Origin: Commensalibacter nepenthis
GTDB taxonomy: Bacteria; Pseudomonadota; Alphaproteobacteria; Acetobacterales; Acetobacteraceae
Length of the DNA: 64,000 nt
Direction of reading: 5' to 3'
Assembly: GCF_029953305.1 (NCBI RefSeq)
Contig: NZ_JASBAN010000001.1
Location: 1,325,501-1,389,500, forward strand
Shown here: positions 57,659 to 61,034 of the stretch, piece after piece
Position numbering within the stretch: position 1 is the stretch's first letter
Layout of the letters: each line of letters starts with the position of its first letter
Notes under the pieces: model-generated
Seen by the model: the letters and a program-made list of their open reading frames with translations, nothing else
Told to the model about the DNA's origin: nothing
Database searches by the model: none
Program-made: the position numbers and the translations under genes

Positions 57659-57940
57659 ATGTTTTTTAGCAAAAAAGACAAGAAAAAAGCAGCAGAGCTT
57701 CAAAAAAGTGCCCAAGAAGAAATCGTATCTTTAAAAAAACAAGTCGAAGATTTGTTAAATGATCGTGTAACGCCTGCAATTGTGCAAGCAGCAGATAAAG
57801 CAGATAAGGTTGTTCATAATACAAAGGAAATAACCGATCATCAAATGAAACAGGTTTCTGATAAAGTACAATCTAAACCTTTAATTGCTATTGTTCTATC
57901 CATCGTCATTGGGTATTTATTAGGTAGAGTTATTCGTTAA
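57659..57940 (+). CDS. DUF883/YqjD-like membrane-anchored protein
   Basis: 93 residues. A long Lys/Glu-rich amphipathic helix (ELQKSAQEEIVSLKKQVEDLL) leads to a C-terminal hydrophobic anchor with the typical ending PLIAIVLSIVIGYLLGRVIR, of which the GY(L)LGR is the family hallmark. E. coli YqjD and ElaB of this family anchor to the inner membrane and bind ribosomes in stationary phase. AAGGAGAG precedes the ATG. Probably in one transcript with the next gene. Confidence 0.85.
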   Translation: MFFSKKDKKKAAELQKSAQEEIVSLKKQVEDLLNDRVTPAIVQAADKADKVVHNTKEITDHQMKQVSDKVQSKPLIAIVLSIVIGYLLGRVIR

Positions 57941-57974
57941 TTTTATCGTAATATAGAAAGTGATTTAAAAACTC

Positions 57975-58406
57975 ATGAAGATTGCTGAGTATGGTAAGGC
58001 CGCAGTTGATGCTGAGGTTCTGCTTCTTAAGAAAAAGTCAATTAGAATTAGCAAACAAGTTGTTTTATGCTTGATTGGTGCTCTTTTTGGCTTGTTTACT
58101 TTGATTTCAATTCATGCTGTTTTGGCCGCGTTATGTTGGAATATCTTCCATACAGGCGTTTTAGGAACCGCGTTGATTATTTTGGTGTTTGATATTGTTT
58201 GCATGCTGTTGCTATTTTTGTGTGCATTTAAACAAAGAGTCAGCGAAGAAGAGATCGAAGCAAAAATCGTTCGTAATTATAACCTAAAAGAATTACGAAA
58301 TTCATTAGCTGTTACTGCATTAATAGGTACGCTTAGTGGACCCTTGGGCGGCTATTTACGTGGTTTTTTTTGGCAGTTTATTAAAAAAATATTTAAAAGA
58401 AATTAA
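57975..58406 (+). CDS. YqjE-like (holin superfamily III) membrane protein
   Basis: 143 residues with two central hydrophobic segments (about 30-60 and 67-93), an N-terminal KIAEYGKAAVDAEVLLLKKK helix and a basic C-terminus (FIKKIFKRN). The layout and its place after a DUF883 gene match E. coli yqjDE. 'Phage holin' in the family name does not mean a lysis role. Follows the YqjD-like gene by 34 bases. Confidence 0.7.
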   Translation: MKIAEYGKAAVDAEVLLLKKKSIRISKQVVLCLIGALFGLFTLISIHAVLAALCWNIFHTGVLGTALIILVFDIVCMLLLFLCAFKQRVSEEEIEAKIVRNYNLKELRNSLAVTALIGTLSGPLGGYLRGFFWQFIKKIFKRN

Positions 58407-58550
58407 TTGCTACAGACAACATTGGTGGTTGATTATGGTTTTGAAGTTAACCATCAATAATATTTTATTGCTATTCATATAATGTTATATTTTTTTTTGT
58501 TTTCAACTTATGATAGTTATATAATTTAGGAACTATCTGGAGTAGATATT

Positions 58551-59261
58551 ATGCATGTTCTTCTTATGGGTGAAACGTTTTTTTCTGAACATGAGTTTTA
58601 TCAGGAGTTGAAAGCGACAGGATTCTCAATCGATCGTGTTGGCTATGATCCGCAAATATTATCAGCATCTCAGTTTTACGACTACGATATGATTATCGTT
58701 GAATTAGATCAGCTAGATAAACAATTTTTCGCTACGATCAAATTATTAAGATCAATTAACGAGCAATTGCCCATTATTATCGTTTCTAAAAAAGACGACG
58801 TAGACATGAAAATACAAGCCTTTCAAGCAGGTATTGATGATTACGTTATGATCCCTTTTGCGATGCCTGAATTATTAGCTCGGTGTAAGGCTGTTTTGAG
58901 GCGATCCAATAAAGTAATTGCAGACCGTGTCATTCAAGTTGGGCAGTTGAAAATCAATTTGGAAACACGTGAGGTGTTTGTAAGTGGTAAACCAGTTAAT
59001 CTTACGGGCAAAGAATATGCTATCTTAGAGATGTTGGTATTAAGACGAGACGTGTTAATTAGTAAAGTTACAATTTTAAATGCTCTATATGCCGGCAGTA
59101 GTGATGAGCCTGACATGAAAATTATTGATGTCTTTGTTTGTAAGCTAAGAAAAAAATTGCAAAAAGCTGGTGCTGGCGATCTAATTTCAACAATGTGGGG
59201 GCAAGGTTATATATTCCGTCAACCAAGCCCCGTTTCGACAGAGCACGAGCATGCAATGTAA
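58551..59261 (+). CDS. CtrA-like response regulator with Glu at the phospho-acceptor position
   Basis: 236 residues, receiver plus winged-helix DNA-binding domain. The effector is strongly CtrA-like: VNLTGKEYAILEMLVLRR, then DEPDMKIIDVFVCKLRKKL, and MWGQGYIF near the end. The receiver aligns to Caulobacter CtrA without gaps over the first 50 residues (YDYD at 43-46), but residue 51, the phosphorylated Asp in CtrA, is Glu (IIVELDQ). The acidic pocket is also altered (GET instead of EDD at 7-9) and the switch lysine of 'TKPF' is Ile (VMIPF). It therefore is probably not phosphorylated and may be permanently active. GGAGTAGAT precedes the ATG. The ortholog or paralog question needs the genome. 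Converges on nadK with a 6-base gap. Confidence 0.85.
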   Translation: MHVLLMGETFFSEHEFYQELKATGFSIDRVGYDPQILSASQFYDYDMIIVELDQLDKQFFATIKLLRSINEQLPIIIVSKKDDVDMKIQAFQAGIDDYVMIPFAMPELLARCKAVLRRSNKVIADRVIQVGQLKINLETREVFVSGKPVNLTGKEYAILEMLVLRRDVLISKVTILNALYAGSSDEPDMKIIDVFVCKLRKKLQKAGAGDLISTMWGQGYIFRQPSPVSTEHEHAM

Positions 59262-59267
59262 TCACAG

Positions 59268-60056
59268 CTAGGCTGTAAATTGCTCTGTTACGATTCTTTC
59301 TGACAATTCATGCCCTGGATTAAATAGAATTTCAGATTTGATCTTTTTATTTTCCTTTACAAAAACTTTGGTTACATCCCTAATCTCAGTAAAATCTGCT
59401 ACTGCCGCGATTGGTCGTTTCTGTTCTTCGATGGTTAAGAATTGAATAGAGGTGCTAGAAGGCAAGAGAGCACCTTTCCACCTACGAGGACGAAACGGAC
59501 AAATAGGCGTTAGTGGTAACAGCTCAGAGTTAAGCGGAACGATAGGACCGTGGGCGGATAAATTATAAGCTGTCGACCCTGCTGGGGTTGAAACAATAAT
59601 ACCATCACAGATAAGCTCTGATAACCTAATTTCATCATTTGTAATAATTTGAATTTTGGCGGCTTGTCTTGTTTGTCGATAAAGAAAAATATCATTAAAT
59701 GCCAAAGCAGTGTGGGTTTTACCATCAGCCGTGTATGCAGTCATCGATAATGGATGGAGGTATGTCGGTTGTGCTTGGTGTAAAATAGCAGGTAGATCTC
59801 TTTCCAATGGTATTTTTGGATTTGTTAGGAAACCAACAGAGCCAAAATTAATACTGTAAATCGGAATATGATAGTTTAAATAATTGTGTAATGTCTCCAA
59901 CATAAACCCGTCGCCGCCGATACAGATAATGACTTCGGCTTCATTGATGTCAGAATTTCCGTATTTATCAATAAGGCTCTTTTTATATTGGGTAGCTTTC
60001 GAGCTGGGTATAGAAACAAAATGTAATTTTTGTGGAGGATTCGTTGGTGGCCACAT
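59268..60056 (-). CDS. nadK: NAD kinase
   Basis: Phosphorylates NAD to NADP. 262 residues with the catalytic GGDGFMLETLH (about 47-57; Asp49 the base), the NFGSVGFLTN segment (about 73-82), DGIIVSTPAGSTAYNLSAHGPI and TPICPFRPRRW. These are the conserved landmarks of bacterial NadK. Single gene. Confidence 0.95.
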   Translation of the reverse strand: MWPPTNPPQKLHFVSIPSSKATQYKKSLIDKYGNSDINEAEVIICIGGDGFMLETLHNYLNYHIPIYSINFGSVGFLTNPKIPLERDLPAILHQAQPTYLHPLSMTAYTADGKTHTALAFNDIFLYRQTRQAAKIQIITNDEIRLSELICDGIIVSTPAGSTAYNLSAHGPIVPLNSELLPLTPICPFRPRRWKGALLPSSTSIQFLTIEEQKRPIAAVADFTEIRDVTKVFVKENKKIKSEILFNPGHELSERIVTEQFTA

Positions 60057-60506: not shown

Positions 60507-61034
60507 ATGACTACCAATCAAAAGTTTTTAAATTTAGATTCAAAAGATCAAAGTTCAGAAGCAGCTGGTATAGATCAAAGGGTAGGCAGCCGCATTCGTT
60601 TAAGAAGAAGGTTACTGGGATATTCTCAAGAAAAGCTTGCGTTGGCATTGGGGCTTTCTTTTCAACAAGTGCAAAAATATGAAAAAGGAAGTAACCGTGT
60701 CGGTGCATCTAGGCTGTTTGATATAGCAGAAATCTTACAAGTGCCTATTAATTTCTTTTTTGACGAACACTTAAATCCTTTTTACATAGAGGAAAATGCA
60801 TCTTCGTCAAAGTCAAAATCCTCCTCTGCTGTGCAAGCTTGTGATGTTCATGTGGCGTTGGATGAAGATCATGTCGTAGGTAACTCTTTACCAACTGGAA
60901 ATGATGACGCTTTTGATTTAATGACCAGCAAAGAAACAATGAATTTGTTAAAAGCTTATTATGCGATTCAAGAGCCAGAAGTCCGTCAAAGACTGTTACA
61001 TTTAATTTGTGCGATGAGCGACAATAGCAAGTAA
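60507..61034 (+). CDS. XRE-family transcriptional regulator
   Basis: 175 residues. The helix-turn-helix lies at about 26-85: IRLRRRLLGYSQEKLALALGLSFQQVQKYEKGSNRVGASRLFDIAEIL. The SQ(E/T)KLA-LGLSFQQVQKYEKG form is the alphaproteobacterial group found beside many conserved loci. A Ser-rich linker and a C-terminal helix (MNLLKAYYAIQEPEVRQRLLHLICAM) shared by that group follow. Target genes unknown. It converges on the phosphatase gene. Confidence 0.9.
   Translation: MTTNQKFLNLDSKDQSSEAAGIDQRVGSRIRLRRRLLGYSQEKLALALGLSFQQVQKYEKGSNRVGASRLFDIAEILQVPINFFFDEHLNPFYIEENASSSKSKSSSAVQACDVHVALDEDHVVGNSLPTGNDDAFDLMTSKETMNLLKAYYAIQEPEVRQRLLHLICAMSDNSK

What the first reader, a model, noticed from the sequence alone, without database searches (positions are those of the whole stretch)
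58551..59261. CtrA homologue that naturally carries Glu at the phospho-acceptor position (D51E-like)
The protein aligns to Caulobacter CtrA without gaps to residue 51, where Glu replaces the phosphorylated Asp. The acidic pocket (residues 7-9) and the switch Lys before Pro-Phe are changed too, while the DNA-binding domain stays CtrA-like. D51E is known as a laboratory mimic that makes Caulobacter CtrA constitutively active. Here it seems fixed by evolution, suggesting CtrA control uncoupled from CckA-ChpT, or a second CtrA-like regulator that competes for CtrA sites. The Caulobacter comparison is from memory of the family.
Basis: partly seen in the sequence, partly recalled or inferred. Interest (0 to 1): 0.75.

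Follow-up and report, generated by a model that had tools for sequence, protein, structure and literature searches.

The report
CtrA regulator that lost its phospho-switch
A bee- and fly-gut bacterium keeps its only copy of the cell-cycle regulator CtrA although the site where CtrA is normally switched on has been lost, together with the protein that supplies the phosphate; the same loss runs through the acetic acid bacteria, so CtrA there most likely works without its classic switch.

Summary
Observation confirmed. Window 58551-59261 (+) encodes a 236-aa OmpR/PhoB-type protein, the only CtrA of a Commensalibacter genome (Acetobacteraceae). Glu (GAA, 58701-58703) sits at the phospho-acceptor position 51. 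The acidic pocket is G7-E8-T9 and the switch Lys is Ile101, while the DNA-binding domain stays CtrA-like.

It is not an isolated D51E. All nine Commensalibacter genomes share the eroded pocket (eight E51, one N51). None has ChpT or a CckA-grade kinase, and all lack flagella. Across Acetobacteraceae, genomes with ChpT have D51 (83 of 84). Genomes without detected ChpT have E, D, R, A, H, N, S or G there. On an rpoB tree the five pocket residues change once on ChpT-bearing branches and 68 times on ChpT-less ones. The tested dimer-face residues hardly change anywhere.

Best reading: an orthologous CtrA that became a phosphorylation-independent pseudo-receiver after the relay was lost, acting as an orphan dimeric DNA-binding regulator. 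"Uncoupled from CckA-ChpT" is supported. "Second CtrA" is refuted. "Constitutive phosphomimic" is doubtful for this protein (Lys101 gone, N51 in a sister species) but open for other acetic acid bacteria. Chemistry and targets are untested.

The parts
58551..59261 (+). ctrA orthologue, 236 aa, pseudo-receiver plus winged-helix DNA-binding domain
58551..58901 (+). receiver (pseudo-receiver) domain, residues 1-117; folded (beta-alpha)5 in the AlphaFold2 model
   Evidence: dN/dS 0.005-0.13 in the receiver
58569..58577 (+). former acidic pocket E7-D8-D9, here G7-E8-T9
58701..58703 (+). codon 51, GAA = Glu at the phospho-acceptor position
58785..58787 (+). Ser79 (conserved S/T of the receiver), kept
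58851..58853 (+). codon 101, ATC = Ile in place of the conserved switch Lys
58884..58886 (+). Cys112 on alpha5 (dimer face), fixed in all 9 Commensalibacter, 2 of 171 elsewhere
58923..59225 (+). OmpR/PhoB DNA-binding domain, residues 125-225; recognition region 183-201 77% identical on average to ChpT-bearing relatives
57659..58406 (+). two small membrane-protein genes (YqjD/YqjE-like, my label) upstream; in basal relatives fliJ-fliI stands between the second of these and ctrA
59268..60056 (-). nadK, the conserved neighbour of ctrA in Commensalibacter and basal acetic acid bacteria
58447..58454 (+). TTAACCAT, a CtrA half-site-like word about 107 bp upstream of ctrA; present only in this species and the closest one, and about as frequent in the window as AT-rich DNA would give by chance

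Best explanation
This is the single, vertically inherited CtrA orthologue of Commensalibacter, turned into a pseudo-receiver regulator. SHOWN from sequence: ChpT and a CckA-grade kinase are absent; the residues needed for phosphoryl transfer (D8, D51, K101) are gone; the receiver is under purifying selection; the charged alpha4-beta5-alpha5 residues and the recognition region are kept; the gene sits in the old ctrA locus from which fliI-fliJ have gone. INFERRED: the protein dimerises without phosphorylation through the kept face, binds CtrA-type sites constitutively, and is controlled by its amount or by another input rather than by an Asp-phosphate switch. E51 is probably inherited from an acetic-acid-bacterium ancestor in which D was replaced after the relay was lost. 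With Lys101 gone it is unlikely to act as a true phosphomimic here. Its targets are unknown; they cannot be flagellar genes in this genus.
For: No ChpT in 9 of 9 Commensalibacter. The 13 HATPase_c proteins of the genome are kinases paired with regulators, generic HDFN kinases or GHKL enzymes; the genus scores about 165-225 bits against the CckA model, against 464-566 in most other alphaproteobacterial orders sampled. No receiver resembling DivK or CpdR was seen on inspection. Residue 51 against ChpT in Acetobacteraceae: with ChpT 83 D, 1 E; without detected ChpT 54 E, 39 D, 11 R, 3 A, 3 H, 1 N, 1 S, 1 G, 3 unreadable. Branch counts on an rpoB tree: pocket sites 7, 8, 51, 79, 101 change once on ChpT-bearing and 68 times on ChpT-less branches, P = 7e-7 against the whole receiver's ratio; dimer-face sites stay at about 1 change per site against a receiver mean of 13.9. 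K/R87, D96, D97, E107, R/K111, R117, R118 near-invariant in every group. dN/dS well below 1 in both domains. Synteny yqjE-ctrA-nadK equals the basal yqjE-fliJ-fliI-ctrA-nadK minus fliJ-fliI. No flagellar rod genes in 9 of 9 Commensalibacter. D51E as phosphomimetic allele: PMC12186491. Unphosphorylated CtrA is active in Rhodobacter capsulatus: PMC6363796.
Against: No biochemistry: absence of phosphorylation, dimerisation and DNA binding are inferred. Only part of the dimer face was tested, and its role comes from established knowledge of OmpR/PhoB regulators. No conserved CtrA box was found upstream of ctrA in the genus. Some ChpT-less relatives (G021, G054) keep D8, D51 and K101, so ChpT loss does not always erode the site at once. 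A test on phylogenetically independent pairs is underpowered (6 pairs, median p 0.25). One ChpT-bearing MAG, G155, has E51.
Confidence: 0.7

Rival explanations
1. Natural phosphomimic: E51 locks CtrA in the phosphorylated-like state, as the laboratory D51E allele does in Caulobacter, so the regulator is constitutively active because of the Glu itself.
For: E is the commonest replacement. In the 46 non-Commensalibacter E51 proteins S/T79 and K/R101 are kept in 46 of 46 while the Mg-binding D8 is lost in 43, as expected if only the mimic contacts are still needed. Outside Commensalibacter, proteins whose residue 51 is neither D nor E have lost K/R101 in 17 of 19 readable cases. Both GAA and GAG codons keep Glu. 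PMC12186491 treats D51E as phosphomimetic.
Against: In Commensalibacter K101 is I/A and E7 is G in all nine, and the earliest-branching species has N51. Over ChpT-less branches site 51 changes 15 times, no slower than the receiver mean of 13.9. PMC12632262 notes that the mimic hypothesis was disproved for some pseudo-receivers.
Confidence: 0.15
2. A relic on the way to loss: without relay and flagella CtrA is decaying, and E51 is drift with no function.
For: CtrA has been lost outright in several relatives (G053, G139, G100, G123, G140, G231). Position 51 drifts in ChpT-less lineages.
Against: Intact ORF in 9 of 9 species, receiver dN/dS 0.005-0.13, conserved recognition region and dimer face.
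Confidence: 0.1
3. A different input replaced phosphorylation, for example a redox switch through Cys112, which is fixed on alpha5 of the dimer face in the whole genus, or a ligand or partner protein binding the receiver.
For: C112 in 9 of 9 Commensalibacter and 2 of 171 other CtrA. Redox control through a Cys is known for atypical regulators such as RitR and HP1021 (PMC12632262). Several residues near the pocket are fixed only in this genus: M6, F10, F11, E13, D33.
Against: A single Cys; no partner found; nothing tested.
Confidence: 0.05

Closest known systems
[quoted passage not shown]
   Same: Domain order, DNA-binding domain and recognition region, charged alpha4-beta5-alpha5 residues, locus shared with relatives
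   Different: No D51, no D8, no K101, no C-terminal Ala-Ala, no ChpT or CckA-grade kinase in the genome
Pseudo-receiver (aspartate-less) OmpR/PhoB regulators such as ChxR of Chlamydia
   Same: Receiver kept, phosphotransfer residues lost; ChxR forms dimers without phosphorylation (PMC12632262)
   Different: Not derived from CtrA and not tied to a traced loss of a phosphotransferase
Rem of Agrobacterium and Sinorhizobium
   Same: Alphaproteobacterial atypical regulator that works without phosphorylation (PMC12632262)
   Different: A separate motility activator, controlled by MirA binding; here the genus has no flagella
Laboratory allele ctrA D51E, with or without the stabilising C-terminal change, in Caulobacter (PMC12186491)
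   Same: Same residue; in many acetic acid bacteria the Ala-Ala end is missing too
   Different: The natural Commensalibacter protein has also lost the rest of the pocket, including Lys101

Membership tests
CtrA (orthologue) | Receiver plus Trans_reg_C architecture | tested here: met
CtrA (orthologue) | Best model is CtrA and passes its cut-off | tested here: inconclusive
   NF045991 is the best model at 212 bits but below 350; scores fall stepwise 421 > 376 > 352 > 317 > 274 > 212 from outgroup orders to this species
CtrA (orthologue) | Conserved position in the ctrA locus | tested here: met
   yqjE-ctrA-nadK, as in basal relatives minus fliJ-fliI
CtrA (orthologue) | CtrA recognition region | tested here: met
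   77% identity on average to ChpT-bearing relatives over residues 183-201
CtrA (orthologue) | Binds TTAA-N7-TTAA type sites | not testable with these tools
   window scan near chance level; upstream word not conserved in the genus
CckA-ChpT-CtrA phosphorelay output | Phospho-acceptor Asp51 | tested here: not met
   E51 or N51
CckA-ChpT-CtrA phosphorelay output | ChpT present in the genome | tested here: not met
   custom profile finds none near ctrA or in the window
CckA-ChpT-CtrA phosphorelay output | CckA present in the genome | tested here: not met
ClpXP-degraded CtrA | C-terminal Ala-Ala | tested here: not met
   ends -HAM; none of nine Commensalibacter ends in AA
Pseudo-receiver (aspartate-less) | Receiver fold without the phosphotransfer residues | tested here: met
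Pseudo-receiver (aspartate-less) | Activity independent of phosphorylation | not testable with these tools
   inferred only
Natural D51E phosphomimic | Glu with S/T79 and K101 to contact | tested here: not met
   S79 kept, K101 replaced by I

The most novel reading that the evidence does not exclude
Acetic acid bacteria lost ChpT and then fixed the equivalent of a laboratory allele: CtrA with Glu51 as a built-in phosphomimic (S/T79 and K/R101 kept, Mg-binding D8 discarded) and without the C-terminal Ala-Ala. That is a master cell-cycle regulator made permanently 'on' and stable by evolution, with Commensalibacter as a later stage in which even the mimic pocket dissolved.
Probability: 0.25. Interest if true: 0.8.

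Novelty: new variant of a known kind. Interest (0 to 1): 0.6.

Why it matters
Earlier comparative work noted that chpT and cckA are often missing in Rhodospirillales that keep ctrA, and suggested that the search may have missed a diverged ChpT or that another phosphotransferase replaces it (PMC2877005, PMC8116508). The decay of CtrA's own phosphosite in the ChpT-less lineages indicates that the relay is really gone in many of them. It offers a set of natural D, E, N, A, H and R51 variants with which to test what phosphorylation of CtrA is needed for, and how a receiver domain keeps working once its switch is lost. I found no report of this in the papers I could search; most subscription journals were not covered.

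Tried and rejected
Second CtrA copy: none in the genome. Missed or diverged ChpT: PF10090 gave no hit in the genus and a custom ChpT profile found none within about 10 kb of ctrA in the acetic acid bacteria tested. CtrA-box argument: TTAACCAT upstream is not conserved, and counts in the window look like chance. C-terminal Ala-Ala loss as an independent correlate: strong in raw counts (40 of 55 against 5 of 54) but not on independent pairs. A first rpoB tree used wrong-frame ORFs for high-GC genomes (branch length 6.97) and was discarded and rebuilt. Viral contigs: no relative.

Full report
WHAT IS THERE. The ORF 58551-59261 (+) is intact and encodes a receiver plus OmpR/PhoB DNA-binding domain. 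The CtrA model is by far its best NCBIfam match, but at 212 bits it is below the curated cut-off of 350. The genome is Commensalibacter: the protein is 97% identical to the one in C. communis LMG 31819, 81% to C. papalotli and 74% to C. intestini.

In an alignment that is gap-free up to residue 51, that residue is Glu where CtrA has Asp. The pocket E7-D8-D9 reads G-E-T, K101 is Ile and S79 is kept. The frame is tied to the solved CtrA receiver 4qpj_C through L036, and the AlphaFold2 model (mean pLDDT 83.5) puts residues 51, 79 and 101 at the ends of beta3, beta4 and beta5. All nine Commensalibacter have the eroded pocket; eight have E51 and G001, the earliest-branching of the five on the tree, has N51.

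ONLY CtrA, NO RELAY. Other response regulators of the genome are 25-32% identical. ChpT (PF10090) is absent from all nine Commensalibacter, while among the control genomes it rings only in Caulobacter. The 13 HATPase_c proteins are kinases beside regulator genes, two generic HDFN kinases, NtrB/NtrY-like kinases and gyrase/MutL/HSP90-type enzymes (names by eye). The two HDFN kinases score at most 233 bits against CckA models with cut-offs of 1000. Against NF046026 the genus scores about 165-225 bits, most other orders 464-566, and the rest of Acetobacteraceae at most about 360. The single-domain receivers found do not look like DivK or CpdR (judged by eye).

FAMILY-WIDE PATTERN. I read residue 51 in CtrA genes of about 200 genomes. 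Outgroup orders: 8 of 8 D. Acetobacteraceae with ChpT: 83 D and 1 E (MAG G155). Without detected ChpT: 54 E, 39 D, 11 R, 3 A, 3 H, 1 N, 1 S, 1 G, 3 not readable. Some of the 39 ChpT-less D51 genomes are draft MAGs in which ChpT may simply be missing from the assembly; 23 of them keep D8 and K101. That error works against the association, not for it.

TREE-BASED TEST. On an rpoB tree of 75 genomes (quick ML) all 40 acetic-acid-bacterium rows lack ChpT. A basal group (G094 and genus g72) keeps D51 but has lost D8. In the 33-genome core 24 have E51, 5 D, 2 A, 1 H, 1 N. Further D-to-E changes occur in G170 and G104 (no ChpT) and G155 (ChpT present). Whether E arose once in the core with reversals, or several times, is not resolved. 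Counting changes by parsimony with ChpT treated as loss-only, the five pocket sites change 1 time on ChpT-bearing branches (length 3.97) and 68 times on ChpT-less ones (5.25), against 459 and 1626 for the whole receiver (P = 7e-7). On ChpT-less branches the pocket evolves at the receiver's mean rate (13.6 against 13.9 changes per site), but the tested alpha4-beta5-alpha5 sites at 1.0. Independent pairs give too few contrasts (6 pairs, median p 0.25).

TWO GRADES OF EROSION. In 46 E51 proteins outside Commensalibacter, S/T79 and K/R101 are kept in 46 of 46, E/D7 in 46 of 46, but D8 in only 3. Where residue 51 is neither D nor E, K/R101 is lost in 17 of 19 readable proteins outside Commensalibacter. 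That suggests a link between E51 and K101 in those lineages. Commensalibacter belongs to the deeper grade: E7 to G, K101 to I or A, G59 to a bulky residue, G80 to K, R or Q.

STILL A WORKING PROTEIN. dN/dS is 0.005-0.13 in the receiver in all pairs that could be computed and mostly similar in the DNA-binding domain (one near-identical pair, G008/G005, gives 0.26 there from very few changes). Average identity to ChpT-bearing relatives is 31% in the receiver, 57% in the DNA-binding domain and 77% in the recognition region. K/R87, D96, D97, E107, R/K111, R117 and R118 are kept in essentially all groups; from established knowledge of OmpR/PhoB regulators these belong to the dimer face.

LOCUS HISTORY. 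In ChpT-bearing relatives ctrA is divergent from fliI, and chpT lies about 6 kb away beyond a chemotaxis cluster with cheA, cheW and cheR. G017, with E51, keeps chemotaxis genes there but no chpT. In the basal relative G009 the order is yqjE-fliJ-fliI-ctrA-nadK; Commensalibacter has yqjE-ctrA-nadK, and none of its nine genomes has flagellar rod genes. So the protein is orthologous by position and no longer serves flagella.

MECHANISM. Most likely an orphan, phosphorylation-independent dimeric DNA-binding regulator. Shown: loss of relay and pocket, conservation of dimer face and DNA-binding domain. Inferred: dimerisation, DNA binding, control by amount or another input. Active unphosphorylated CtrA has a precedent in Rhodobacter capsulatus (PMC6363796), and dimers formed without phosphorylation are known among pseudo-receivers (PMC12632262). 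The laboratory D51E allele is described as phosphomimetic (PMC12186491), but without Lys101 this is doubtful for the window's protein.

NOVELTY. Missing chpT and cckA in Rhodospirillales were already reported (PMC2877005; PMC8116508). I found no report of the matching decay of CtrA's phosphosite; the library lacks most subscription journals.

Noticed in passing
L365-L369: In ChpT-bearing Acetobacteraceae chpT stands at the end of a chemotaxis gene cluster next to the divergent ctrA-fliI pair.
   Followed up: yes
window 58884-58886; L016, L098, L152: Cys112 on alpha5 is fixed in all nine Commensalibacter and seen elsewhere only in G084 and G158 (both genus g77); a possible redox handle.
   Followed up: partly
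genomes G053, G139, G100, G123, G140, G231: Several Acetobacteraceae have no CtrA-grade match at all, so CtrA appears dispensable there.
   Followed up: no
G085:C1:2264457-2264948: The best CtrA match of a genome that has ChpT is partial and carries two in-frame TAA codons.
   Followed up: no
L042:2687-3334: A MAG labelled Candidatus Kaiserbacteria carries a CtrA-like gene with Ala at position 51; probably an alphaproteobacterial contig binned wrongly.
   Followed up: no
G021 (L028) and G054 (L153): ChpT-less acetic acid bacteria that nevertheless have D8, D51 and K101 (G021 with a one-residue gap just after residue 51): reversals, or retained sites fed by another donor.
   Followed up: partly
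window 60507-61034: XRE-family regulator gene near ctrA-nadK, conserved in the locus of other Commensalibacter and of G021 (cluster c32); an XRE regulator represses ctrA and chpT in Cereibacter (PMC11999139, title and abstract only).
   Followed up: no
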